The notes below the pieces were generated by a model. It was given only the letters and a program-made list of their open reading frames with translations. It searched no databases and was not told the origin of the DNA. Source: Hymenobacter psychrophilus (GTDB taxonomy: Bacteria; Bacteroidota; Bacteroidia; Cytophagales; Hymenobacteraceae). Taken from it: 64,000 bases of DNA. Both the position numbers and the translations under genes were made by a program. This document shows, one piece after another, positions 1,931 to 43,732 of the stretch; positions within the stretch are counted from its first letter, which is position 1, and each line of letters opens with the position of its first letter. The stretch is from assembly GCF_900107135.1 (NCBI RefSeq), contig NZ_FNOV01000003.1:1-64000 (forward strand). The letters run 5' to 3'.

Positions 1931-3442
<1,512 letters not shown>

Positions 3443-3477
3443 TTATAGATTGGGATTGGGTGCAACGATTCAGGCCG

Positions 3478-3509
3478 CAAAACTACGGCTTAATCGTGGC
3501 ATTGCCAAA
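3478..3509 (-). promoter_or_regulatory. Bacteroidetes-type promoter for atpD-atpC
   Basis: Read on the minus strand: TTTG (3506-3509), a 20-base spacer, then TAGTTTTG (3478-3485), matching the TTTG/TAnnTTTG consensus of the Bacteroidetes primary sigma factor. The predicted start of transcription is near 3471, about 35 bases before the atpD ATG. Confidence 0.65.
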
Positions 3510-3630
3510 GCCCACAGCTACGGGCTGCTGTCAACTTTTTTTTCAGGGTCTGAAACCCTGATTTTCAGCTCTGAAAGACCCTTCGATGCCTGTTGGCCCC
3601 CGGAATCAAGTAAAAATTTTTCGCCGGAAA

Positions 3631-3704: not shown

Positions 3705-3777
3705 TGTCCGATGGTGTAACTGGCAACACGCTTGATTTTGATTCAAGAAAGTCCAGGTTCGAGCCCTGGTCGGACAA
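3705..3777 (+). tRNA. trnQ: tRNA-Gln (anticodon UUG)
   Basis: The sequence folds into a full cloverleaf. The acceptor arm is TGTCCGA with TCGGACA, the anticodon stem is CTTGA with TCAAG, and the T arm is CCAGG-TTCGAGC-CCTGG. The seven-base anticodon loop TTTTGAT places TTG at positions 34-36, which reads CAA (and CAG by wobble) as glutamine. The discriminator base is A and CCA is not encoded. A consensus promoter lies upstream and a strong terminator hairpin begins 13 bases downstream, so it is a single-gene transcription unit. Confidence 0.93.
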
Positions 3778-3790
3778 CTGACGCAGCCAA

Positions 3791-31837: not shown

Positions 31838-34800
31838 ATGATGAAACGTTTTCTCCTGCTAAGCTGGGCCAGCCTGCTAGCCGTAGCCTCTTTGGAAGCG
31901 CGGGCCCAGGTTGCGCTTACGAGCAGCCCCTACGTTGAAACCTTCGACGGACTAGCCAGCGGCCTGCCCGCCGGCTTCGGCATTTATACCAATGCCGGCC
32001 CCAACCAGGTTGGCACGCCGGCTACGCTCACTACGGCCCCCACCACCTGGGGCAACAGCAGCGGCGCGTTCAAGAACCTTGCCTCGGCCACCGGCCTCAA
32101 AAGCACCACTTCGTCGGCCGACCAGGCGGCCAGCCCCAACCGGGCCCTGGGCCTGCGCCAGACCGGCAGCTTCGGCGACGGTACCAGCACGGCCACCCCG
32201 CCTACCGGCGTTGGGCCGGCCTTCGTATTTCAGGTGGCCAACACGCTGGGCAAAACCGATTTCGAGCTGAACTTCCGGCTGCAGTCGCTCGACAGCACGA
32301 TTGGGCGCACCGCTACCTGGCAGGTCGAGTACGGCTTTGGAGCCACGCCCGCAGCCTTTACGGCGGTGGGCACGACGGCCACCACCGGCCCGTTCTTCGC
32401 CAACTCCGCCCTTAAAGTCGGCTTCGGCGGGGCGCTCGACAACAAAGCCGGGCCCGTCTGGATTCGGATTGTGGCCCCCACGCCTACTACGGGCCCCGGC
32501 AGCCGCCCCAGCTCGGCCATCGACGACTTTGCCCTCAGCTGGAACGCCAACCCCAACGCGCCGGTGCTGGCCGTAGCCCCCGCCACGCTCGATTTCGGCC
32601 AGCAAACCGTTAATGTTCCTTCAGCCCCGCGCACATTCACGCTTACCGGCACCCGGCTGACGGCCGCTGCTACCGTCCGCACGGCGGCCCCGTTCGCTGT
32701 TTCCAAGGACGGAACGACGTTCGACACCACCGCGGTGTACACGGTGGCCGAGCTGGCCCAGCCCCGGCTGGTGTACGTGCGCTTTACGCCCACCACTTTG
32801 GGCCAGGCCAGCGGCGCCGTAAGCGGCGTGGCCAACGTCCGGAGCCCCGGCGCAACCAGTCGCGATGTGGCGCTTAGCGGCAGCGGCAACGACCTCACGC
32901 AGACTGTATTTAATTTCAATGCCTGCACCAGCTCCACGGCCCTTGCCGATGGCTGGGCGCAGTTCAGCGTAACGGGCGCCCAGACCTGGGCCTGCACCAG
33001 CTTTGGGCGCAACCCCACCGACCCGACCGACTCGGCCCCCAACCCCAGTGCCGTGCAGATGAACGGCTTTGCCAACGGGGGCAACGTGGCCAACGAGGAC
33101 TGGTTCATTTCGCCCGCCCTCAACCTGACCAGTACCAGCTTCCCGCTGCTGTCTTACTGGACCCGCACGGCCTTCAATGGCCCGGGCCTGCGCCTGCTGG
33201 TTTCTACCACCTACTCCGGCACCGGCAACCCCAACGCCAGCGGCGTAACCTGGACCGATCTGAGCGCCAACTTCCCCGCCCAGAACTCGAATGTGTGGCA
33301 GAACAATAGCCTCGACCTGAGCGGCTATAAGCGGAGCGGCGTATACGTGGCCTTCGTGTACACCTCGACCACCAACGGGGCCGCCCGCTGGAGCCTCGAC
33401 GATGTGGTGCTCACCAACTCGGCCACGCCCTCGGCGCCCACCGTGCGCCTGAGTATCCAGAACCTGGCTTTCGGCTACCAGCCGGTGAACACGCCGGCCT
33501 ACCGGAACATCGTGCTGACGACCACCAACCTGACCGGCCCGCTAACGGTAACATCGCCCGACGTTGCATTTCAGCTCTCGAAAGACAGCCTCGTATTCAG
33601 CTCCAGCCTCACCTACAGCCAGGCCGAGGCCAGCAACCGCCAACTACCGATTCGGGTGCGGTTCCTGCCCACGCGGGCCGCGGCCGATTATGCCGCTACG
33701 CTGAGCGTGGCCACGGCCAACGTGCCGACGCTGACCCCGAACCTGCGCGGCAACACCTACGACGCGGCGAAAACCCTGGAGGTGGTGAACTGGAACGTGG
33801 AGTGGTTTGGCTCGACCACCGCAGGCCAGGGGCCGACTGATGTGGACCTGCAGCAAACCAACGTAACGGCCATGCTCAGGGCCCTGGCCGCCGATGTGTA
33901 CGCGCTGCAGGAAGTGGTGGACACGGTGCGTCTGCGCAACCTCACGGCCACGCTCTCGGCACAGTCGGGCCTGCCCTACGGCTACAAAATTGCCGATTTT
34001 GGCTCCTATAGCGACAATACGGCTGACCCCGATTACGCTTCGACCCAGAAACTGACCTTTATCTACCGCAAAGACGTGGTGCGGCCCGTGAAGTTTGAGG
34101 GGCTGCTGCGCTGCACGGAGGCGCAGAACTGCCCCGCCTTCAACGCCTGGGCCTCGGGCCGCTTCCCGTTCCTGATGGCCGCCGACGTCACGCTCGACGG
34201 CAAAACGCAGCGCGTCAACTTCGTAAGCATCCATGCCAAGGCGAATTTTGCGGCCAGCTCGGCCAACGACTACGCCCGCCGCAAGCTCGGCGCCGAGCAG
34301 CTGAAAGCCCTGCTCGACACCAGCTACCCCAACGCCAGCACCCTGATCCTGGGCGACTTCAACGACGTGCTCGAAGGCACCATTGCCACCGGCGTAACGC
34401 CGGCCGTGTCGTCGTACAACACCTTCGTGGCCGACCCCAACTACGTGGGCCTCACCCTGCCGCTGGCCCGCGCCGGCGCCCAGAGCACGGTAGGCTTCGG
34501 AACGGTGATTGACAACGTGCTAGCCACCAAGCCGATGGCCTCGTACTACATCAACGGCTCGGCCGCCATCCGCACCGACCTGGCGGCCGGCATTGCCAGC
34601 TACGCCAGCACCACCACCGACCATTACCCGGTGTTCACGCGCTTTTCGCTGAGCCAGACGCCCACGGCCACTACCGCCGCCACAACTACCGGCCCGCTGC
34701 ACCTGTACCCCAACCCGGCCAGCAGCAGCCTGCGGTTTGAGGTGCCAGAAACCGGCCGGAACCTGCGCTTGAGCGTGTACACCACCACCGGCCGTCTGGT

Positions 34801-34936
34801 ACTGGAAGCCACCGGCTCGGCCGAGCAGCTGAATCAGCAGCTCAGCCAGCGTGTGGCTGGCCTGAGCGGCGGCCTGTACGTGGTGCGCGTAACGGGCGCG
34901 AAGCAGGCCTACGTGAGTCGCTTTCAGAAGCTATAG
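31838..34936 (+). CDS. T9SS-exported endonuclease/exonuclease/phosphatase-family protein
   Basis: A 1032-residue secreted protein. The signal peptide is MMKRFLLLSWASLLAVASLEARAQ-like (cleavage after about 23). Beta-sandwich modules follow: a jelly-roll-like region (30-230), two Ig-like repeats with VLAVAPATLDFGQQTVNV and LSIQNLAFGYQPVNTPAY, and a MAM-like module between them (358-530, ending SLDDVVLTN). The catalytic domain starts at about residue 645 with VVNWNVEWFGS and contains ALQEVVDTVR, LILGDFNDV and TTDHYPVFTRF, the exonuclease/endonuclease/phosphatase signature seen in ExeM-like extracellular DNases. The last 78 residues (LHLYPNPASSSLRFEVPETG to the C terminus) are a type A T9SS sorting domain. 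It probably digests extracellular DNA for nutrients or biofilm turnover. Confidence 0.93.
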   Translation: MMKRFLLLSWASLLAVASLEARAQVALTSSPYVETFDGLASGLPAGFGIYTNAGPNQVGTPATLTTAPTTWGNSSGAFKNLASATGLKSTTSSADQAASPNRALGLRQTGSFGDGTSTATPPTGVGPAFVFQVANTLGKTDFELNFRLQSLDSTIGRTATWQVEYGFGATPAAFTAVGTTATTGPFFANSALKVGFGGALDNKAGPVWIRIVAPTPTTGPGSRPSSAIDDFALSWNANPNAPVLAVAPATLDFGQQTVNVPSAPRTFTLTGTRLTAAATVRTAAPFAVSKDGTTFDTTAVYTVAELAQPRLVYVRFTPTTLGQASGAVSGVANVRSPGATSRDVALSGSGNDLTQTVFNFNACTSSTALADGWAQFSVTGAQTWACTSFGRNPTDPTDSAPNPSAVQMNGFANGGNVANEDWFISPALNLTSTSFPLLSYWTRTAFNGPGLRLLVSTTYSGTGNPNASGVTWTDLSANFPAQNSNVWQNNSLDLSGYKRSGVYVAFVYTSTTNGAARWSLDDVVLTNSATPSAPTVRLSIQNLAFGYQPVNTPAYRNIVLTTTNLTGPLTVTSPDVAFQLSKDSLVFSSSLTYSQAEASNRQLPIRVRFLPTRAAADYAATLSVATANVPTLTPNLRGNTYDAAKTLEVVNWNVEWFGSTTAGQGPTDVDLQQTNVTAMLRALAADVYALQEVVDTVRLRNLTATLSAQSGLPYGYKIADFGSYSDNTADPDYASTQKLTFIYRKDVVRPVKFEGLLRCTEAQNCPAFNAWASGRFPFLMAADVTLDGKTQRVNFVSIHAKANFAASSANDYARRKLGAEQLKALLDTSYPNASTLILGDFNDVLEGTIATGVTPAVSSYNTFVADPNYVGLTLPLARAGAQSTVGFGTVIDNVLATKPMASYYINGSAAIRTDLAAGIASYASTTTDHYPVFTRFSLSQTPTATTAATTTGPLHLYPNPASSSLRFEVPETGRNLRLSVYTTTGRLVLEATGSAEQLNQQLSQRVAGLSGGLYVVRVTGAKQAYVSRFQKL

Positions 34937-35603: not shown

Positions 35604-36221
35604 ATGGACCACACCGCCGCCGCCATGCCCGTCATCACCGACATCTCCCAGCTCGACCTGACCAAAACCTATACCTACGCCGACTACCTGACGTGGCGGC
35701 TGGACGAGTTCGTGGAGCTGGTAAAGGGCAAGGTGCGCCTGATGAGCCCCGCGCCCCGCCGGATTCATCAGCAACTGGCCCGCAATGTATTCCGGCACAT
35801 CGACCAGCATGTACTAAATGGCCCCTGTGAGGCCTACTTCGCGCCCTTCGACGTACGCCTGCTCACGGATGGACCCGATGGCAACTCCCCCATCACTACC
35901 GTTGTGCAGCCCGACCTCTGCGTCATCTGCGACCCAAATAAGCTGGATGAAAAAGGCTGCCTGGGTTCCCCCGACTGGGTTATCGAAATCCTGAGCCCCA
36001 AAACGGCGGCCTACGACACCCGCGAGAAGTTCAGCCTCTACGAAGAAGCCGGTGTGGCGGAATACTGGATTGTGTTTCCGGGCGAGCAGACGGTGGCAAC
36101 CTACGTGCTCGAAGCCGGCCGCTACGAGCTACGCGGCACCTACTACGAGCCGGGCCTGATTCCGTGCGCGACATTGCTGGGGTTTGCGGTGGAGTGGGCG
36201 GAGGTGTTTGCGGGAGTGTGA
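35604..36221 (+). CDS. Uma2 family (DUF820) putative endonuclease, paralog 1
   Basis: A 205-residue protein. The Uma2 fold is a PD-(D/E)xK-like nuclease domain. Visible landmarks are YADYLTWRLDEFVELVKGKV, MSPAPRRIHQQL, VVQPDLCVICDPNKLDEKGC, SPDWVIEILSPKTAAYDTRE and KFSLYEEAGVAEYWIVFPG; the VQPDL, EILSP and K-x(5)-Y-x(3)-G-V-EYW residues are the family's conserved core. Two ATGs are possible, 35604 and 35625; the first is used here. A close paralog is at 44640-45236. Uma2 proteins are abundant in cyanobacteria and Bacteroidetes and their role is unknown. Confidence 0.88.
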   Translation: MDHTAAAMPVITDISQLDLTKTYTYADYLTWRLDEFVELVKGKVRLMSPAPRRIHQQLARNVFRHIDQHVLNGPCEAYFAPFDVRLLTDGPDGNSPITTVVQPDLCVICDPNKLDEKGCLGSPDWVIEILSPKTAAYDTREKFSLYEEAGVAEYWIVFPGEQTVATYVLEAGRYELRGTYYEPGLIPCATLLGFAVEWAEVFAGV

Positions 36222-36228
36222 GGGAATT

Positions 36229-36762
36229 CTATGCTCCTGCCGGAACACACGTAGCTTTAGATATTTCGGCCCCATCTTGAAGCCACTCAATACAGGCCGG
36301 CACATGCGTTACCGGATGCACCCAGGCCACTTGGCGCGGGATGCGCAGGGCGCTGGCATAAAAAGTAAAGAGGTTGAGCACGTTGGTTTCCTGTGAGAGA
36401 ACCATGTCATCCGTGGCCAAGGCATTTTCCAACAGGTGTATATCCTTCAACATTTCTGCTCGCGCCTTATCGGTGCAGTCTAGGGAATACACCGAGTCAG
36501 CTAACCCGCTATCTGGTTCTGGATTCAACGGTATACACAGCTTCCTGCTGAACATTTGAACCAGCCAGTTCTTAGAAAAACCGGATTGATGCTTTTGCCA
36601 CTCCCGGAGTTGCGTGGCGGAAAGCACGATGCGGTGTTGCTCATCTTGCAGAGTTTCTAACGCCTGACGGCAAGCATCAGAAATCGGGTGCTGGCTTGTG
36701 CTGGCCGAGCGGGCTACATTGGTATCGACTACGATGCGGCGTGAGGTTGCTGGCAGCTTCAT
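36229..36762 (-). CDS. PIN-domain nuclease coupled to the ABC-type ATPase
   Basis: A 177-residue protein with a PIN fold: RRIVVDTNVARSAS gives the first acidic residue (D13), LSATQLREWQKH the second (E54), MLKDIHLLENALATDDMVLS the third and fourth (D107 and D118/D119). All four metal-binding positions of a Mg2+-dependent RNase are present. The start ATG (36760-36762) directly follows the ATPase stop TAG (36763-36765) in the same frame, so translation must be coupled or could read through. The C terminus (residues 145-177) has no known domain. A toxin, effector or RNA-processing role is inferred from the fold and partner. No antitoxin-like gene is adjacent. Confidence 0.82.
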   Translation of the reverse strand: MKLPATSRRIVVDTNVARSASTSQHPISDACRQALETLQDEQHRIVLSATQLREWQKHQSGFSKNWLVQMFSRKLCIPLNPEPDSGLADSVYSLDCTDKARAEMLKDIHLLENALATDDMVLSQETNVLNLFTFYASALRIPRQVAWVHPVTHVPACIEWLQDGAEISKATCVPAGA

Positions 36763-38136
36763 CTATTCAGCCGCTTTGCCGGAGTGCCGCATTCCTACCG
36801 CAGTCAGGTAGGCGTCCTGAGCTTTTAGCTCCACGTCGCCGAAGTCCTCGGGCCATTCGCCGTAAGCACCGTCCTCGTCGGGCTGCACGTAGGTTACCTG
36901 GGTCGCGCCTTTCGCGTCGCGGGCAAACCAGTGCAGGGCCACGTCGGTGTTCTTGATTTTCTCCTGGGCAATCAGGGTTTGGATGGTCAGCAGAATCAGG
37001 CTGCTGTGCGTTTCCACGATTACGCGCACACCCCGGTTAGCTGCTTCGGCCAGCAGCTCCGCCATGACAACCTGGGCCCGTGGATGTAGGTGCAATTCAG
37101 GCTGTTCTACATATACAATCTGGCCTTCCTGCGCGGCAATAAGCGCCACCAGAATCGGCAGAACCTGCGAGACGCCGATACCCACATCGGCGATATTAAC
37201 CATATCGGATTTTTTGGGTTTGGCTTTCGTGCCGGCGGGTAGACGGTTTATGCTTAGCTCTACTTCGTTTGCATTCTTCACATTAGCTTCAATGGAGTTA
37301 GTCAAACCTAAGCGAACTAAATACTCATTAAGTTGAGTGAGTGCGTCGCTATTCTTTTGTTGCTGCCATTGGCTAATAGTACCAGCAGAATAAAAATCGA
37401 ATGTCCCTTTGATTTGCTTTTGAAGGAAAGTTGCAGGATAGCTTCGCTTTGGATTGGTTCGTAGACCCGGAATATGGGATATCGATAAAACTAAATCTGA
37501 TAAATCATAAGAAAAAACAATTTCATCTAAGAGCACATTGTCTATTATTCCTTTTTCATCAAAAACTTGTATTTTGAGAAAAGGGGCTTCCATAACAACT
37601 TTTGCACTGTGTGCTGCAACACCAAAGAATTTTAGATGAATTTTGTCAAATTGTGGTTCTATTTCATGCCAACTCATTGCTGGACTTAAATTTATTTCTT
37701 TATTGAACAACATTGATTTCTGATACAATATTGCGAATCCTAACTTATCAAGCCTAAAGGACACTTCTATATCCTCTTTAAACAATTTATCTACTTTCTG
37801 CTCAACTATTTTTATTGAAAAAACATCATTGTACTTATCTATTTTGCTAATTAACTCTCCAGCCGTTTCCGCCTGTACATGCGCCCCATCCAACACGAGT
37901 GCTCCCGCCGGCTGGTACGGTGCTTCCATTGTCTGTTTTATCAACAGCAACGGTTGCATGATGCTCGACTTCCCGGAACTGTTCGTCCCGGCGAGCAGCG
38001 TCAGCGGCTTCACGTGCAGCGTGGCGTCAACCAGTGATTTGTAGCCTTTTACCTGAATCTGCTCGATGAGCATGAAGGGCGGCCGGGAGGGCGCGGCGGC
38101 GGTTGACGAGGGTTTTGGAGCGCGTTTGGTAGCCAT
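36763..38136 (-). CDS. ABC/SMC-type AAA ATPase (DUF3696-like), partner of the PIN protein
   Basis: A 457-residue ATPase. Walker A is AGTNSSGKSSIMQP (G50-S57), with IEQIQVKGYKSLVDATL before it. The signature-like helix is IADVGIGVSQVLPILVAL (about 315-332), Walker B is IVYVEQPELHLHPRAQ (340-354) and the switch His is in VIVETHSSLILL (H377). The C-terminal region (GEWPEDFGDVELKAQDAYLT) resembles DUF3696 proteins. Residues 90-290 are variable and encoded by DNA that is visibly AT-rich, unlike the rest of the gene. The first in-frame ATG at 38134-38136 is used; residue 22 (FMLIEQIQV) is an alternative start. Likely function: a nucleotide- or DNA-end-sensing ATPase that controls the PIN nuclease. 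Confidence 0.85.
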   Translation of the reverse strand: MATKRAPKPSSTAAAPSRPPFMLIEQIQVKGYKSLVDATLHVKPLTLLAGTNSSGKSSIMQPLLLIKQTMEAPYQPAGALVLDGAHVQAETAGELISKIDKYNDVFSIKIVEQKVDKLFKEDIEVSFRLDKLGFAILYQKSMLFNKEINLSPAMSWHEIEPQFDKIHLKFFGVAAHSAKVVMEAPFLKIQVFDEKGIIDNVLLDEIVFSYDLSDLVLSISHIPGLRTNPKRSYPATFLQKQIKGTFDFYSAGTISQWQQQKNSDALTQLNEYLVRLGLTNSIEANVKNANEVELSINRLPAGTKAKPKKSDMVNIADVGIGVSQVLPILVALIAAQEGQIVYVEQPELHLHPRAQVVMAELLAEAANRGVRVIVETHSSLILLTIQTLIAQEKIKNTDVALHWFARDAKGATQVTYVQPDEDGAYGEWPEDFGDVELKAQDAYLTAVGMRHSGKAAE

Positions 38137-38233: not shown

Positions 38234-41200
38234 ATGCTACTCTCCCGACTTGCCCGCCAGCCGTTGCTGGTGTTGCTGGCGCTACTTGGTTTTGCCTGCT
38301 CGCGCTCCGATGAGGGTGCGCCCGACCCCAACGGCGCGGAAATCGACCCCTACCAGAACATCGTGTTCCAGTTTGCCGATGCCGTGGTGGGGCCTGAGCA
38401 GCTGGACCGCTGGGATACTACGCGGGTCGTGGCGTTCGAGCCGGCCATGCGCGGTAAGTTCAAGTGGACCACCGACCGGGAGCTGGTGTTTTCGCCCAAC
38501 GTGCCGCTGCGGCCCAGCACGGCCTTCACGGCCAAGCTGGTGAGCGAGGCCCTGCCCGAAGGCACGCGCCGGGGCACCGAGCTACCCGAAGACCGCCAGA
38601 AATTCCATACGCCCTACCTGGCGTTGCAGGCACCCCAGGCCTTCTGGGGCCGCTCGGAGCGGGCCGCGGGCACGGCCGAGCTGCGGGTGGAACTGCCCTT
38701 CAACTACGCCGTGAAGCCCACCGACGTGAAGCCGCTGCTACGCCTGACCCAGGACGGCGAGCCGGTAGCTTTTGAGGTGGTGGGGGCCGAGGCGGGCCAG
38801 CAGGTGCGCCTGAACCTGAAGCAGCAGTTGCGGCCTGGTTCGCCCTTGCTACTAGCACTGGCCCCCGGCCTGAACGCGGTGGGCAGCGACCTGGCCACCG
38901 ACCAGACCACCGAAGCCGAGCTAACCATGCCCGACCCTCAGGCGCTGGAGGTAACGGCCATCAACGGCACGCTGCAGGGCGCCGACCCGGTTATCACCAT
39001 TCAGACCAACCAGCCGGTGAGCGGGATGGATATGCGGAGCGCCGTGGCCGTGTCGCCGCAGGTAGCCTTTGAGGTGGAGGAGCTGGAAAGCGGCGTGCGC
39101 CTCAAAGGTGGTTTCGAGGTGGGCAAAAGCTACCAGGTACGCCTGAGTAGCGGCTTACGCGGCAGTTTGGGTGGCGAGTTGAACGACGACGTGACCGAGA
39201 CGGTAAGCTTCTCCAACGAGCGGCCCACCATCAGCTTCGCCAGCGCCGACAAGGCCCTGTACCTCGACGCGCTGGGCGCCCGCAACCTGGGCATCCGCAT
39301 CAACGAGGTGGACAAAGTGCAAGTGACCATTGCCAAAGTGTACGCCAACAACATCCAGCAGCTGTTGCGCGGCGGCAGCCAGTACGGCTACCCCGACTAC
39401 GACGGTGAGGATGGGGAAAGCAACCAGGACGAAAACGGCGAATACGTGGACCGTTCCTTCCAGTATTACGACGTGGAGAACCTGGGCAACGTGCTGTCCA
39501 ACCGCACCTACACGGTGGCCGGCATGCCCAAAGAGCAGGGTTTGCGGCTGCTGAACTTGAGTTTGAAAGACCTGGAGTTTTCGGCGGGCCTCAAGGGGCT
39601 CTACGTGATAAAAGTGCAGGATACCGAGCGGCAGTGGCTGCAGGTGAGCAAGCTGGTGGCCGTGTCGGATATCGGCCTGATTGTGAAGCAGGGCGCGGCC
39701 GGCAGCACCATGGTGTTTGCCAACTCGATCCGGGAGGCCAAGGCCCTGGGCGGGGTCGAAATCAGCTACCTGAGCTCCAACAACCAGGTAATGGGCACGG
39801 GCGTCACCAACGGCGCGGGCGTGGCCAAGTTCGATAGCACGGCCCAGAATGCGCGGTTCCGGCTGGGCATGGTGGTGGCCCGGCGCGGCGACGACTTCAC
39901 GTTTCTGGATTTGAGCCGCAGCCGGGTGGAAACCTCGCGCTTCGAGGTGGGCGGGCTGCAAAACAACGCTGCCCGCTACCAGGCCTTCCTCTACGGCGAC
40001 CGGGACCTGTACCGCCCCGGCGACACCATCCAGACCAACACCGTGGTGCGCACCGAAACCTGGCAGGCCCCGCCCAAAGGCCTGCCGCTGAAGGTGCGCC
40101 TGCTGCTGCCCACCGGCAAGGAGTACGCCAGCCTGCAGAAAACCCTGAGCCCCGAGGGCAGCACCGAGGCCCGCTTTATTCTGCCCCCCAGCGTGATGAC
40201 CGGCCTTTACACGCTCGAAATCCTGACCGCCAACGACGTGCTGCTCACCTCGCGCCAGCTCTCGGTGGAGGAGTTTATTCCGGACCGCATGAAGGTGACG
40301 GTGAAAGCCAGCCGGGCCGTAGTAAAGCCCGACCAGACCGTGCAGGCCCTGATTACGGCCCAGAACCTGTTCGGCCCGCCCGCTTCCGACCGCAAGTTTG
40401 AGGTGGAGTTTTCGCTCAAGGAAAAGCGCTTCCAGCCCAAGGAGTACTCCGATTTCGACTTCGCCATCAACAGCGGCAACCGGCGCCGGGGCAACTACGG
40501 CAGCCTGGAGTCAAGCCCGATTTCCGACCGTTTCGAGAAGACCGTGCGCGAAGGCACCACCGACGCCGCCGGCCGCGGCACCGCCACCTACCAGGTGCCC
40601 GACTACCCCGATTTGGGCACCCTGGAAGGCGCGGCCTTTACCACGGTGTTCGACGAAACCGGCCGCCCCGTAAACCGCTATGCCACCTTCGAGGTGCAGA
40701 CCCAGGCGGTCATGTTTGGGGTGAGAAACCTGGGCGAGCTGGCGAAAACCCGCGACGAGGTGCCCGTGGAGCTCGTGGCCCTCACGCCGGCCGGCAAGCC
40801 CACCAGCGCCACCGCCCGCGTGGAGGTAATCCGGATGCTGTGGGAAACCGTGATTGAGCGCCGCGGCGGCCGTTACGTGTACAACTCGCAGAAACGCGAG
40901 GAAACGATTATCCGCCGCAACGTGGAGGTTTCGGGCTCTGGCACCGATGCCAACCTGGGCTTCGCGCCGCAGTATTCGGGCGAGTACGAAATCCGGGTTT
41001 CGCGGCCCGGCGCGGCCACCTACGTATCCCAGCGCGTGTACGCCTACGGCTACGGCGACACCCAGAGCAACTCCTTCGAGGTAAACAACGAGGGCGAAGT
41101 GACCATCGAGGCCGACCAGGAGAAATACGAGCCCGGCCAAATCGCCCACCTACTGCTCAAAACGCCCTTCCCCGGCCGCGTGCTGGTAACGGTAGAGCGG

Positions 41201-43732
41201 GACCGGGTGCTCGACCATTTCTACGTGGATACCGACGAGAAATCGGCCAAAGTCGACATCCCGATTCGCGGCGGCCACGTGCCCAACATCTACGTCACGG
41301 CCACCGCCATCCGCCCCATCAAAGACAACCGCCTGCCCCTGACCGTGGCCCGCGGCTTCGTGCCGCTGACGGTGGAAAAGCCCGGCTCGCGGCTGTCGGT
41401 GGCCATTAAAGCGCCGGAGTTGAGCCGCTCGCAGACCAGCCAGACCATTGAAGTAACCACCGCCCCCGGTGCCCAGGTGACGCTGGCGATGGTAGACGAG
41501 GGGATTTTGCAGATGAAGGATTTCCGCACGCCCGACCCCCACGGCTACTTCTACCAGAAACGCGCCCTCGAAGTGGCGGCCCACGACGTGTACCCCTTCC
41601 TGCTGCCCGAGCTGGGCACCAGCTCCACCGGCGGCGACGGCTACGACCTGGCCCGCCGCACCACGCCCGTACCCTCGCGCCGCGTGAAGTTGCTGGCCAA
41701 GTGGAGCGGCGTGCTCACGGCCGACGGCAGCGGCAAAGTCCGCTACCAGCTCCAGGTGCCCCAGTTCAGCGGGGCCATCCGCATCATGGCCGTGGCCTAC
41801 AAGGGCGACGCCTTCGGCTCGGCCGAGCACACCATGCGCGTCGCCGACCCGGTGGTTATCAGCACCGCCCTGCCCCGCTTCGCCAGCCCCGGCGACACCA
41901 TTGACGTGCCCGTAACGCTGACCAATACGACCAAAACCCCCGGTACCGGCGCGGCCAGCTTGGCCGTAACCGGACCCTTGCGGGTGCTGGGAGCCGCCTC
42001 GCAAACCGTGCGGTTACCGGCCGGCGCCGAGCAGCGGGTGAAGTTCCGGGTGCTGGCCCCCGCCAGCATTGGCAGCGCCACCCTCACCACAACGGTGAAG
42101 GCGCTCAACGAAACCTTCACCGAAACCATCGAGCTACCCGTCCGGCCCGCTTCGCCCTTGCAAAAGCGTACCGGTAGCGGGGTGCTGGCGGGCGGCGGCA
42201 AGGTGCAGCAGCTGAATCTGAAGACCGATTTCATGGCGGCCTCGTTGCGGAGCCAGTTGGTGGTGAGCCGCTCACCGATGGCCGAGTTTGCCAAGGACTT
42301 GCGCTACCTGCTGCAGTACCCCTACGGCTGCCTGGAGCAAACCGTGTCGGCCGCCTTCCCGCAGCTGTATTATGGTGATTTGGTGGCGACGCTGGGGCAG
42401 AAAACCGGTGTCAAGGGCAAGGCGGGGCAGTTCAACCCCAACTACCACGTGCAGGAGGCCATCCGCAAGGTGGAGGCCCAGCAGATGTACAACGGCTCGC
42501 TGAGCTACTGGCCCGGCGGCGACTACGACAACTGGTGGGCCACGGCCTACGCTGCCCATTTCCTGCTCGAAGCCAAGCAGGCAGGCTTTGCGGTGAACAA
42601 GAACGTGCTCGACCGGGTGCTCGGCTACCTCGAAGCCCGCACCCGCCAGCGCGAAACCGAGACCTACAACATCATCCAGACCGGCGGCGTGATTCGGCCC
42701 GTGACGCTGGCCAAAAAGGAAATTCCGTACTCGCTCTACGTGCTGGCCCTGGCCGGGCGACCCACCCCCGTGGCCCTCAACTACTACAAAGCCAACCGCC
42801 CCCTGCTGGCCGACGACTCGCGCTACCTGCTGGCGGCGGCCTTCGCCCTGAGCGGCAATCAGCGCGCCTTCCGGCAGACGGTGCCCACCCGTTTCGGCGC
42901 GGCCCCGAGCATTGCCCGCCGCGAGTTGGGCGGCTCCTTCGCCTCGCCCATCCGCGATATGGCCCTGGTGCTCAACGCCCTGCTCGACGCCGACCCCGGC
43001 AACCCGCAGGTACTTAGCCTGAGCCGCCAGCTGAGCCGCCGCGTGCAGCAGGCCGGCTGGCTGAGCACCCAGGAACGCGCCTTCTCGCTGCTGGCCCTGG
43101 GCAAGCTGGCCAAGAGCAACGCCAACAGCACCGCCACTGCCCAGTTGCTGGCCGACGGCAAGAACATCGGCGCCTTCACCGGCAAAGACCTCACGGTAAG
43201 CAACGTGGCCAACCGCCAAATCACGCTGAAGCCGGCCGACAAGGGCAGCCTCTACTACTTCTGGGAGATGGAAGGCGTTTCGGCCTCGGGCCGCGTGCCC
43301 GAGGAAGACGCCTACCTGATGGTGCGCCGCCAGTTTATGGACCGCAACGGCAACCCGCTAGGCTCGGCCACCTTCCGCCAGAACGATTTGGTGGTAGTCC
43401 GCCTCACGCTGCAATCGGCCGAAAGCGCCGGCGAGGTGCCCAACGTGGCCATCACCGACCTGCTGCCCGCCGGCCTCGAAATCGAGAACCCCCGCATCGG
43501 GGCCGTGCGCGAGCTGGCCTGGGCCAAAGACGCCGCCCAGCCCGACTACCTCGACGTGCGCGACGACCGCCTAAACATCTTCACCACCGCCACGCCCAAA
43601 CCCAAGGCGTTCTACTACTTGGCCCGCGCCGTGTCCAAAGGCACCTTCAAGCTAGGCCCGGTAAGCGCCGACGCCATGTACAACGCCGAGTACCACAGCT
43701 ACTCCGGCGCCGGTGTGGTGCGGGTGCGGTAG
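38234..43732 (+). CDS. Bacterial alpha-2-macroglobulin-like lipoprotein
   Basis: An 1832-residue protein starting at the ATG at 38234, with a lipobox (LLALLGFACSRS, Cys22), so it is anchored in an envelope membrane. It has the domain plan of bacterial A2Ms (YfhM type): several MG beta-sandwich domains (NERPTISFASADKALYLDAL, DRDLYRPGDTIQTNTVVRTE), then the A2M/TED region. The thioester motif is YPYGCLEQTVSAAFPQLYYG with C1366-L-E-Q1369. The complement-type TED helices follow (QMYNGSLSYWPGGDYDNWWA). These proteins trap exogenous proteases in the periplasm or at the surface. In many bacteria it is paired with penicillin-binding protein 1C; here pbpC is 1.5 kb downstream with two genes between. 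Confidence 0.95.
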   Translation: MLLSRLARQPLLVLLALLGFACSRSDEGAPDPNGAEIDPYQNIVFQFADAVVGPEQLDRWDTTRVVAFEPAMRGKFKWTTDRELVFSPNVPLRPSTAFTAKLVSEALPEGTRRGTELPEDRQKFHTPYLALQAPQAFWGRSERAAGTAELRVELPFNYAVKPTDVKPLLRLTQDGEPVAFEVVGAEAGQQVRLNLKQQLRPGSPLLLALAPGLNAVGSDLATDQTTEAELTMPDPQALEVTAINGTLQGADPVITIQTNQPVSGMDMRSAVAVSPQVAFEVEELESGVRLKGGFEVGKSYQVRLSSGLRGSLGGELNDDVTETVSFSNERPTISFASADKALYLDALGARNLGIRINEVDKVQVTIAKVYANNIQQLLRGGSQYGYPDYDGEDGESNQDENGEYVDRSFQYYDVENLGNVLSNRTYTVAGMPKEQGLRLLNLSLKDLEFSAGLKGLYVIKVQDTERQWLQVSKLVAVSDIGLIVKQGAAGSTMVFANSIREAKALGGVEISYLSSNNQVMGTGVTNGAGVAKFDSTAQNARFRLGMVVARRGDDFTFLDLSRSRVETSRFEVGGLQNNAARYQAFLYGDRDLYRPGDTIQTNTVVRTETWQAPPKGLPLKVRLLLPTGKEYASLQKTLSPEGSTEARFILPPSVMTGLYTLEILTANDVLLTSRQLSVEEFIPDRMKVTVKASRAVVKPDQTVQALITAQNLFGPPASDRKFEVEFSLKEKRFQPKEYSDFDFAINSGNRRRGNYGSLESSPISDRFEKTVREGTTDAAGRGTATYQVPDYPDLGTLEGAAFTTVFDETGRPVNRYATFEVQTQAVMFGVRNLGELAKTRDEVPVELVALTPAGKPTSATARVEVIRMLWETVIERRGGRYVYNSQKREETIIRRNVEVSGSGTDANLGFAPQYSGEYEIRVSRPGAATYVSQRVYAYGYGDTQSNSFEVNNEGEVTIEADQEKYEPGQIAHLLLKTPFPGRVLVTVERDRVLDHFYVDTDEKSAKVDIPIRGGHVPNIYVTATAIRPIKDNRLPLTVARGFVPLTVEKPGSRLSVAIKAPELSRSQTSQTIEVTTAPGAQVTLAMVDEGILQMKDFRTPDPHGYFYQKRALEVAAHDVYPFLLPELGTSSTGGDGYDLARRTTPVPSRRVKLLAKWSGVLTADGSGKVRYQLQVPQFSGAIRIMAVAYKGDAFGSAEHTMRVADPVVISTALPRFASPGDTIDVPVTLTNTTKTPGTGAASLAVTGPLRVLGAASQTVRLPAGAEQRVKFRVLAPASIGSATLTTTVKALNETFTETIELPVRPASPLQKRTGSGVLAGGGKVQQLNLKTDFMAASLRSQLVVSRSPMAEFAKDLRYLLQYPYGCLEQTVSAAFPQLYYGDLVATLGQKTGVKGKAGQFNPNYHVQEAIRKVEAQQMYNGSLSYWPGGDYDNWWATAYAAHFLLEAKQAGFAVNKNVLDRVLGYLEARTRQRETETYNIIQTGGVIRPVTLAKKEIPYSLYVLALAGRPTPVALNYYKANRPLLADDSRYLLAAAFALSGNQRAFRQTVPTRFGAAPSIARRELGGSFASPIRDMALVLNALLDADPGNPQVLSLSRQLSRRVQQAGWLSTQERAFSLLALGKLAKSNANSTATAQLLADGKNIGAFTGKDLTVSNVANRQITLKPADKGSLYYFWEMEGVSASGRVPEEDAYLMVRRQFMDRNGNPLGSATFRQNDLVVVRLTLQSAESAGEVPNVAITDLLPAGLEIENPRIGAVRELAWAKDAAQPDYLDVRDDRLNIFTTATPKPKAFYYLARAVSKGTFKLGPVSADAMYNAEYHSYSGAGVVRVR

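What the first reader, a model, noticed from the sequence alone, without database searches (positions are those of the whole stretch)
36229..38136. Candidate two-gene ATPase-PIN system with stop and start codons touching
An ABC-type ATPase (Walker A AGTNSSGKSS, Walker B YVEQPELHLHP, switch VETHSS) ends TAG at 36763-36765, and the next codon in the same frame is the ATG of a PIN-domain nuclease with all four acidic residues present. Readthrough of one amber codon would fuse the two proteins. ATPase-plus-nuclease pairs (Septu, Gabija, PARIS and others) are known anti-phage systems, but I do not recognise this exact pair as a named one. The pair lies in an accessory stretch with Uma2 paralogs on both sides.
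Basis: partly seen in the sequence, partly recalled or inferred. Interest (0 to 1): 0.7.

Follow-up and report, generated by a model that had tools for sequence, protein, structure and literature searches.

The report
Mix-and-match ATPase–PIN phage-defence gene pair
In this Hymenobacter genome, a gene for an ABC-type ATPase with an extremely variable middle part directly abuts a gene for a predicted PIN-type nuclease; the same pair recurs in distant bacteria and in viral contigs, parts of it are exchanged between species, and it likely acts as a phage-defence switch in which the ATPase would sense an invader and let the nuclease cut RNA.

Summary
An AAA_15-type ATPase (36763-38136, -) is followed, with no base between, by a PIN-fold gene (36229-36762). 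The pair is a real module: the PIN follows in 8 of 8 orthologous Hymenobacter loci (8 of 120 genomes), in 50 of 50 fetched family loci from five phyla (two only as fragments), and in 11 of 12 viral contigs (the twelfth is cut). Readthrough is not conserved (in frame in 4 of 60 pairs). Six sister species hold unrelated sequence at this site.

In Poribacteria this segment, and the ATPase C-terminal tail plus PIN, reassort independently.

Best reading: a phage-carried conflict system, sensor ATPase plus RNA-cutting PIN, working like PARIS or Septu but with a PIN effector. It is a separate clade from PADLOC's HEC-03 candidate and Menshen NsnB. Against it: no excess of defence genes nearby, and 14 of 56 PINs lack the first catalytic Asp. 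Function is untested.

The parts
36763..38136 (-). AAA_15/AAA_21 ABC-type ATPase, 457 aa
37963..37992 (-). Walker A, AGTNSSGKSS (residues 49-58)
   Evidence: sequence; G55, K56 and S57 in 56 of 56 pairs
37471..37854 (-). hypervariable AT-rich segment, residues 95-222; proposed sensor domain
   Evidence: 28.6% GC, below each of 1988 sampled 384-nt segments of the window, the lowest of which (28.9%) overlaps it; 19% mean identity (residues 95-215) among 9 Hymenobacter copies against 88% in residues 26-90 and 305-440
37081..37113 (-). Walker B region, YVEQPELHLHP (residues 342-352)
   Evidence: sequence; E344, P346 and E347 in 56 of 56, Q345 in 52 of 56
37000..37017 (-). VETHSS switch (residues 374-379)
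   Evidence: sequence; E375, T376, H377 and S378 in 56 of 56
36766..36810 (-). ATPase C-terminal tail (last 15 residues); position of the segment that travels with the PIN gene in Poribacteria
   Evidence: shown in Poribacteria; transferred to the window by position
36760..36765 (-). TAG stop touching the ATG of the PIN gene
36229..36762 (-). PIN-fold nuclease, 177 aa; acidic residues D13 (36724-36726), E54 (36601-36603), D107 (36442-36444), E125 (36388-36390)
35604..36221 (+). Uma2 gene, 3' flank, tail to tail with the PIN gene; whole beside the site in 3 of 6 sister species, shortened in 2, absent in 1
38234..43732 (+). alpha-2-macroglobulin-like lipoprotein gene, divergent flank; its first 500 residues match in 116 of 120 genus genomes (E 1e-60). 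The family name is recalled; Pfam gave only Big_5 for those residues

Best explanation
This is a two-gene conflict module, likely an anti-phage system, in which an ABC-type ATPase with a hypervariable middle domain would act as the sensor and a predicted PIN-type nuclease as the RNA-cutting effector. Shown by my calls: the two genes occur together in the family loci examined; both keep their catalytic motifs (except D13 of the PIN in one Poribacteria class); the middle of the ATPase is hypervariable; that middle and the tail-plus-PIN unit have reassorted separately between Poribacteria species; the pair rides on viral contigs, some of them beside terminase or integrase genes. Inferred: ATPase units form a scaffold that holds the PIN protein, probably through the ATPase C-terminal tail; binding of a phage product to the hypervariable domain, with ATP turnover, frees or activates the PIN; the PIN then cuts RNA, most likely tRNA or mRNA, and stops translation, so that infection fails. 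This is how PARIS is described to work, with a TOPRIM nuclease in place of the PIN (partly recalled).
Against: No excess of defence-model hits among neighbours against control stretches. In Poribacteria the pair is in 49 of 84 genomes and 15 of 18 stretches read share recurring flank genes, unlike a purely mobile system. 14 of 32 full poribacterial PINs have Asn for the first catalytic Asp, yet are under purifying selection (median dN/dS 0.17). dN/dS of the variable segment is raised but below 1 (0.37 against 0.12). No complex, ATPase activity or RNA cleavage was tested; the ATPase model is middling (pLDDT 74). Much of the exchange evidence rests on MAG contigs. No phage record (50,697) held a close relative: the ATPases of the window and of two viral loci gave only remote or no matches.
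Confidence: 0.6

Rival explanations
1. A stress or addiction module of toxin-antitoxin type: the ATPase only restrains the PIN toxin, as VapB restrains VapC, and phages are not the trigger.
For: PIN fold close to VapC and FitB toxins; overlapping genes in 37 of 60 pairs; recurring single site in Poribacteria; copies in prophage-like contigs could serve maintenance.
Against: An addiction antitoxin needs no hypervariable, exchanged middle domain. Three copies keep an open ATPase with a truncated PIN (L117, L122, L140) and one has a broken ATPase frame with a whole PIN (L022), which does not suit strict addiction, though sequencing error is possible.
Confidence: 0.2
2. The PIN acts on DNA: a Rad50-like ATPase loads a structure-specific nuclease onto foreign or damaged DNA.
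Against: The nearest PIN structures are mostly RNases or RNase toxins (VapC, HARP, SMG6, Nob1); the sister system carries an RNA ligase.
Confidence: 0.12
3. The amber codon is read through and the two proteins are made as one fusion.
For: In the window the stop and start share a frame with no base between; L127 has the same arrangement.
Against: In frame in 4 of 60 pairs; spacings -14 to +21 nt; stops TGA 25, TAG 18, TAA 17; each of these 60 pairs has a stop between the two genes.
Confidence: 0.02

Closest known systems
HEC-03 (PADLOC candidate; HEC = 'Hma-embedded candidate'; proteins HEC-03A and HEC-03B)
   Same: ABC ATPase of the same superfamily followed by a small PIN-like gene; the same hypervariable AT-rich segment in 9 Hymenobacter copies of that type
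   Different: Separate ATPase clade; window ATPase scores 140 bits on HEC-03B against 445 for the Aeromonas copy; window PIN does not hit HEC-03A, 2 of 18 family PINs do, best E 0.0068; PIN profiles match only weakly; RNA ligase as third gene seen only in HEC-03-type loci
Menshen (NsnABC)
   Same: NsnB is the best PADLOC model for the ATPase (E 2.7e-60)
   Different: PIN is not NsnC and the flanks are no NsnA; separate clade
PARIS (AriA-AriB)
   Same: ATPase hits the AriA models (107 bits); proposed to work alike: ATPase scaffold holding back an RNA-cutting nuclease (AriB tRNA cleavage from the abstract of PMC12409363; the scaffold role is recalled)
   Different: Effector is a PIN fold, not TOPRIM
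Septu and retron Eco7/Ec78 (PtuA-PtuB)
   Same: Head fold: PtuA among the nearest solved structures; ATPase-nuclease pair
   Different: PtuB is an HNH nuclease (recalled); no HNH and no retron found here
VapBC and other PIN toxins
   Different: Partner is an ABC ATPase, not a small DNA-binding antitoxin; the family carries its own conserved W, H and M positions
RecN-like ATPase plus VapC-like PIN noted in UBA1952 (PMC10924106, passages seen); composite ATPase-PIN proteins of huge phages (PMC8297831, passages seen)
   Same: ATPase joined with a PIN domain, in a bacterial MAG or in phage genomes
   Different: Presented as CARD-system-like, or as single composite proteins; their sequences were not compared here

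Membership tests
HEC-03 | HEC-03B-type ATPase | tested here: not met
   Hits the model at 140 bits but falls outside the HEC-03B clade, which is held by a starred branch
HEC-03 | HEC-03A small PIN gene downstream | tested here: not met
   A PIN gene is downstream, but it has 0 PADLOC hits at E<=0.1; profile match probability 20%
Menshen | NsnA and NsnC genes next to NsnB | tested here: not met
   PIN is not NsnC; flanks are Uma2 and an alpha-2-macroglobulin-like gene
Menshen | NsnB ATPase | tested here: inconclusive
   Best PADLOC model, E 2.7e-60; separate clade, joined to the Menshen rows only at weak support 75
PARIS | TOPRIM nuclease AriB | tested here: not met
   Effector is PIN fold
Septu | HNH nuclease PtuB | tested here: not met
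VapBC | PIN-fold toxin | tested here: met
   fold only; PIN_3 E 1e-3, below cut-off; toxicity untested
VapBC | small antitoxin gene upstream | tested here: not met
   The upstream gene is the ATPase in each of the 50 family loci
Anti-phage system (function) | protects cells from phage | not testable with these tools
   needs plaque assays
Anti-phage system (function) | carried on mobile elements or phages | tested here: met
   12 IMG/VR contigs; accessory in the genus; but no plasmid match for the PIN
Anti-phage system (function) | clusters with other defence genes | tested here: not met
   no excess against control stretches in a coarse test; single clear case L162

The most novel reading that the evidence does not exclude
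A two-gene bacterial immune receptor that evolves by mixing parts: an exchangeable hypervariable sensor cassette inside an ABC ATPase and an independently exchangeable docking-tail-plus-PIN effector cassette, shuffled between species at a recurring chromosomal site and dispersed by temperate phages, so that each lineage pairs its own phage detector with its own RNA-cutting weapon.
Probability: 0.45. Interest if true: 0.8.

Novelty: new variant of a known kind. Interest (0 to 1): 0.62.

Why it matters
ATPase-nuclease pairs are a large class of phage defences whose triggers are mostly unknown. Here natural variation itself marks which ATPase segment is probably the sensor and which short tail goes with the effector, so swap experiments can be designed directly: exchange residues ~95-222 and ask whether phage specificity follows; exchange tail plus PIN and ask whether the RNA target follows. 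It also gives the HEC-03 candidate a proposed mechanism (RNA cutting with an RNA ligase beside it) and links the superfamily to prophage-like cargo.

Tried and rejected
Readthrough fusion: rejected on frame counts. Defence-island enrichment: tested on 136 neighbour ORFs from 23 of the 43 loci in hand (all 18 poribacterial loci left out as one recurring site, L173 and L175 for short contigs) against 68 ORFs from 21 of 38 control stretches; no excess seen. That test is coarse: the PADLOC table in alignment mode lists families, not proteins, and shows 25 of 94 (neighbours) and 25 of 105 (controls) matched families. First thought that paralogous ATPases (E ~1e-20 to 1e-42) lack a PIN: wrong; on reading the ORFs several are followed by a diverged PIN-like gene (HEC-03A type in L051-L055, L107, L108, L114; a third type in L112, L113, which Pfam did not name for L113). 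Plasmid search with the PIN: no match; with the ATPase: 39 records, all remote DUF3696-type relatives. Phage records: 16, all remote; none for the ATPases of two viral loci. A search with residues 92-225 alone found only the protein itself, so no donor of the sensor segment is known; the search is word-limited and would miss diverged relatives. The middle domain was not folded or searched alone. Rfam: only a tRNA in the window. Papers: the searches listed no description of this pair that I recognised; I saw passages of PMC9252829, PMC8297831, PMC10853773, PMC7824862, PMC13356809, PMC12988326 and PMC10924106 and the abstract of PMC12409363. PMC13356809 names HEC-03 once, as a subtype. The 2020 ABC-ATPase classification and the 2022 paper sought as the source of Menshen are not held, so an earlier mention there is possible. 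The cause of the low GC (import from AT-rich phages, or loss of GC-biased recombination) was considered and left open; viral copies have 33-44% GC in the heads too.

Rows dropped before counts: one search returned 21 loci, 2 not counted as pairs (L023, a fragment whose genome has a whole copy, L102; L024, a 25% match to part of the ATPase). One search read 66 loci; 6 with a PIN identical to another were dropped, leaving 60. One search dropped 4 of 60 with short PIN (L018 contig end; L117, L122, L140 truncated); 16 of 24 loci per flank gene; 116 of 496 pairs; 9 of 12 paralogue loci; 10 of 12 viral loci (L244 cut; L246 left out as near-identical to L245).

Full report

IS THE PAIR REAL? Yes. In 120 genomes of the genus, 8 have the PIN and the same 8 have the orthologous ATPase (E<=1e-166), always adjacent. 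The genus is Hymenobacter: contigs of two of these genomes have the lengths of the Hymenobacter records L006 and L007. Of 21 loci, the 19 counted (L004-L022) have the PIN directly downstream, L018 being cut by its contig end and L022 having a broken ATPase frame. With a family alignment, matches at E<=1e-60 were found in 2 of 345 Bacteroidota, the window's genome being one of the two (which listed 3 at E<=1e-40), in 10 of 292 genomes of the phylum of the Oscillatoria locus, 6 of 301 of the phylum of the Dehalococcoidia locus and 49 of 84 of the poribacterial phylum. The 50 distinct family loci fetched in these searches, window included, all have PIN sequence next to the ATPase, in L117 and L140 only a fragment; 31 of 51 poribacterial matches were fetched. 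Of 60 distinct pairs the PIN start lies -14 to +21 nt from the ATPase stop and overlaps it in 37; it is in the ATPase frame in 4 (window, L127, L128, L129). So the touching codons look like ordinary translational coupling, not a readthrough signal.

WHERE IT SITS. In the window the pair fills the gap between a Uma2 gene and an alpha-2-macroglobulin-like gene whose start is found in 116 of 120 genus genomes. In the six closest species (90-95% identity in that start) the corresponding gap holds six mutually unrelated stretches of 127-721 bp at 39-46% GC, five with an ORF of over 100 codons; the only trace of the pair is a chance-level match (E 0.22). Uma2 is whole beside the gap in three of the six (L065, L069, L070), shortened in two (L066, L068) and absent in one (L067). 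The pair is thus an occupant of a cargo site. Neighbours in other genomes are mostly ordinary genes. The PADLOC comparison of neighbours with control stretches showed no excess: for example mad2 in 4 of 136 and PD-T4-6 in 3 of 136 neighbours, mad3 in 3 of 68 and AriA in 3 of 68 controls. One copy (L162) lies between type III Mod and Res genes. In Poribacteria 15 of 18 stretches read have one or both of two recurring genes, dioxygenase-like by eye, downstream.

PHAGE CARRIAGE. A scan of IMG/VR with the ATPase alignment gave 18 contigs, 12 with family ATPases (36-40% identity, E<=6e-73; L245 and L246 are near-identical); the PIN follows in 11, and L244 ends at the ATPase. In four contigs (L241, L245, L246, L249) likely terminase genes follow, the small-subunit gene 0.7-1.0 kb and the large-subunit gene 1.2-1.5 kb past the PIN; the large subunit of L246 was confirmed by sequence (6z6d, E 9e-18), the others by likeness. 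In L248 the ATPase starts directly after an HP1-type integrase (E 2e-76), and in L243 a similar integrase, by likeness, follows the PIN. These are positions where temperate phages carry cargo (recalled). This is the best evidence for a role in phage-bacteria conflict. The ATPases of two of these loci had no match in 50,697 phage records.

A HYPERVARIABLE, AT-RICH MIDDLE. Mean pairwise identity of nine Hymenobacter ATPases is 0.88 in residues 26-90 and 305-440 but 0.19 in 95-215; the figures for 95-215 are 0.31 in 8 cyanobacterial, 0.46 in 32 poribacterial and 0.20 in 10 viral copies. In the window this segment (37471-37854) has 28.6% GC, below each of 1988 sampled 384-nt segments of the 64-kb window (mean 62.4%, sd 5.9; the lowest, 28.9%, overlaps it). 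All 9 Hymenobacter copies have the dip (0.29-0.41 against 0.48-0.65 in the heads), and third-position GC falls in 31 of 32 poribacterial, 6 of 8 cyanobacterial and 4 of 5 Chloroflexota copies; the viral copies are AT-rich throughout. The segment is predicted to be mostly ordered and rich in strands, so it is not a loose linker. Nine HEC-03-type ATPases of Hymenobacter, including a second ATPase-PIN pair in this very genome (G000 contig 23, L051), show the same pattern. Median dN/dS in Poribacteria is 0.37 in the segment against 0.12 elsewhere (116 of 496 pairs usable).

TWO EXCHANGEABLE CASSETTES. Poribacterial PINs fall into two classes, Asp13 (18) and Asn13 (14), which form one clean split on the PIN tree (1 change). 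On the tree of the ATPase body (alignment columns 1-520) the same labels need 11 changes, as many as shuffled labels (mean 10.6-10.7; 353-366 of 500 as low), at least 5 forced by well-supported branches, and one clade is rejected (AU p 3e-5). No ATPase column before the last 15 predicts the PIN class perfectly, but 10 of the last 15 do. DNA identities correlate tail with PIN at 0.89 and sensor segment with the next part of the gene at 0.70, while the tail correlates with the ATPase body at 0.08 or less. L130 and L152 share an identical 354-nt run over most of the sensor segment, while adjacent windows of the gene are 65-90% identical; genes outside the locus are mostly 80-100% identical, so these are near relatives and the mosaic may equally mean that the other parts were replaced around a shared sensor. 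L133 and L146 share a 442-nt identical run in tail plus PIN while their sensors are 60% identical. On trees of two flanking genes the PIN class is also scattered (4 and 5 changes in 16 loci each, no better than shuffled; few supported branches). One Hymenobacter copy (L057) has an ordinary ATPase (58-63% to the others) with a foreign PIN (34-40%). Caveats: most poribacterial loci are MAG contigs; recombination in conserved stretches would by itself keep the tail with the PIN, so docking by the tail is a hypothesis, not a result.

CATALYTIC RESIDUES. In 56 full pairs the Walker A, Walker B and switch residues checked are invariant except Q345 (52 of 56); in the PIN E54 and D107 are 56 of 56, D or E at 125 is 56 of 56, D118 is 53 of 56 and D13 is 42 of 56, the other 14 being Asn, all poribacterial. 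The Asn class is as constrained as the Asp class (median dN/dS 0.17 and 0.19). Whether it is active is unknown, and it speaks against a uniform nuclease model.

WHAT IT IS CLOSEST TO. PADLOC ranks NsnB first and HEC-03B second for the ATPase. NsnB was tied to Menshen by the notes of a Vibrio phage record, and HEC to 'Hma-embedded candidates' by PMC12988326 (passages seen), which says that several HECs are active and names HEC-06, not HEC-03, in the passage seen. A plasmid of Aeromonas veronii carries an HEC-03 pair followed by an RNA ligase gene, and viral contigs L250 and L252 carry a related ATPase, a PIN-like gene read by eye, and an RNA ligase (39% and 53% identity to the first). The tree of 39 ATPases puts the window family in its own clade (99*), apart from HEC-03B and Menshen; their order is unresolved. 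The PIN families match only weakly as profiles (probability 20%).

HOW IT MOST LIKELY WORKS. Shown: pairing, motifs, hypervariable middle, reassortment of parts, phage carriage. Inferred: the middle domain binds a phage product; the ATPase scaffold holds the PIN and lets it go or switches it on; the PIN cuts RNA; translation stops. The analogy is PARIS, whose AriB nuclease cleaves tRNA (abstract of PMC12409363; the rest recalled). I give this 0.6, mainly because no function has been tested and the neighbourhood test failed.

Noticed in passing
G000 contig 23, locus L051 (ATPase and PIN-like gene, minus strand, PIN-like gene at 3136-3618): The same genome holds a second, HEC-03-type ATPase-PIN pair with its own hypervariable AT-rich middle.
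   Followed up: partly
L157:3998-6626, L250:1222-3813, L252:2909-5501: HEC-03-type ATPase and PIN-like gene are followed by an RNA ligase gene in an Aeromonas plasmid and two viral contigs; suggests an RNA cut-and-repair system.
   Followed up: partly
L162:6729-13334: In a Bacteroidota genome the pair lies between type III restriction Mod and Res genes.
   Followed up: yes
L065-L070 (381, 688, 127, 379, 710, 721 bp between the flanks): The site beside the alpha-2-macroglobulin-like gene holds a different unrelated AT-rich stretch in each of six sister species; a small-gene cargo site.
   Followed up: partly
L008, L009, L011, L015, L016, L020, L021, L131, L132, L139, L153-L156: A poribacterial PIN class with Asn for the first catalytic Asp, retained under purifying selection.
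   Followed up: partly
L106, L109, L110: Related ATPases followed by a ~330-aa gene (weak MIT_C hit in L110, E 0.025); a possible further effector type on the same kind of ATPase.
   Followed up: no
L164:12094-16391 and L166: Cyanobacterial copies near leuS sit with another AAA_15 ATPase gene, a macro-domain gene next to a DarT-like gene, or a DUF262-like gene; looks like a variable defence site (leuS, DarT and DUF262 named by eye).
   Followed up: partly
window 3705-3778: tRNA-Gln (TTG), the only RNA family hit in the window.
   Followed up: no
window 31838-34936: 1032-aa protein with an endonuclease/exonuclease/phosphatase domain and a Por secretion tail.
   Followed up: no
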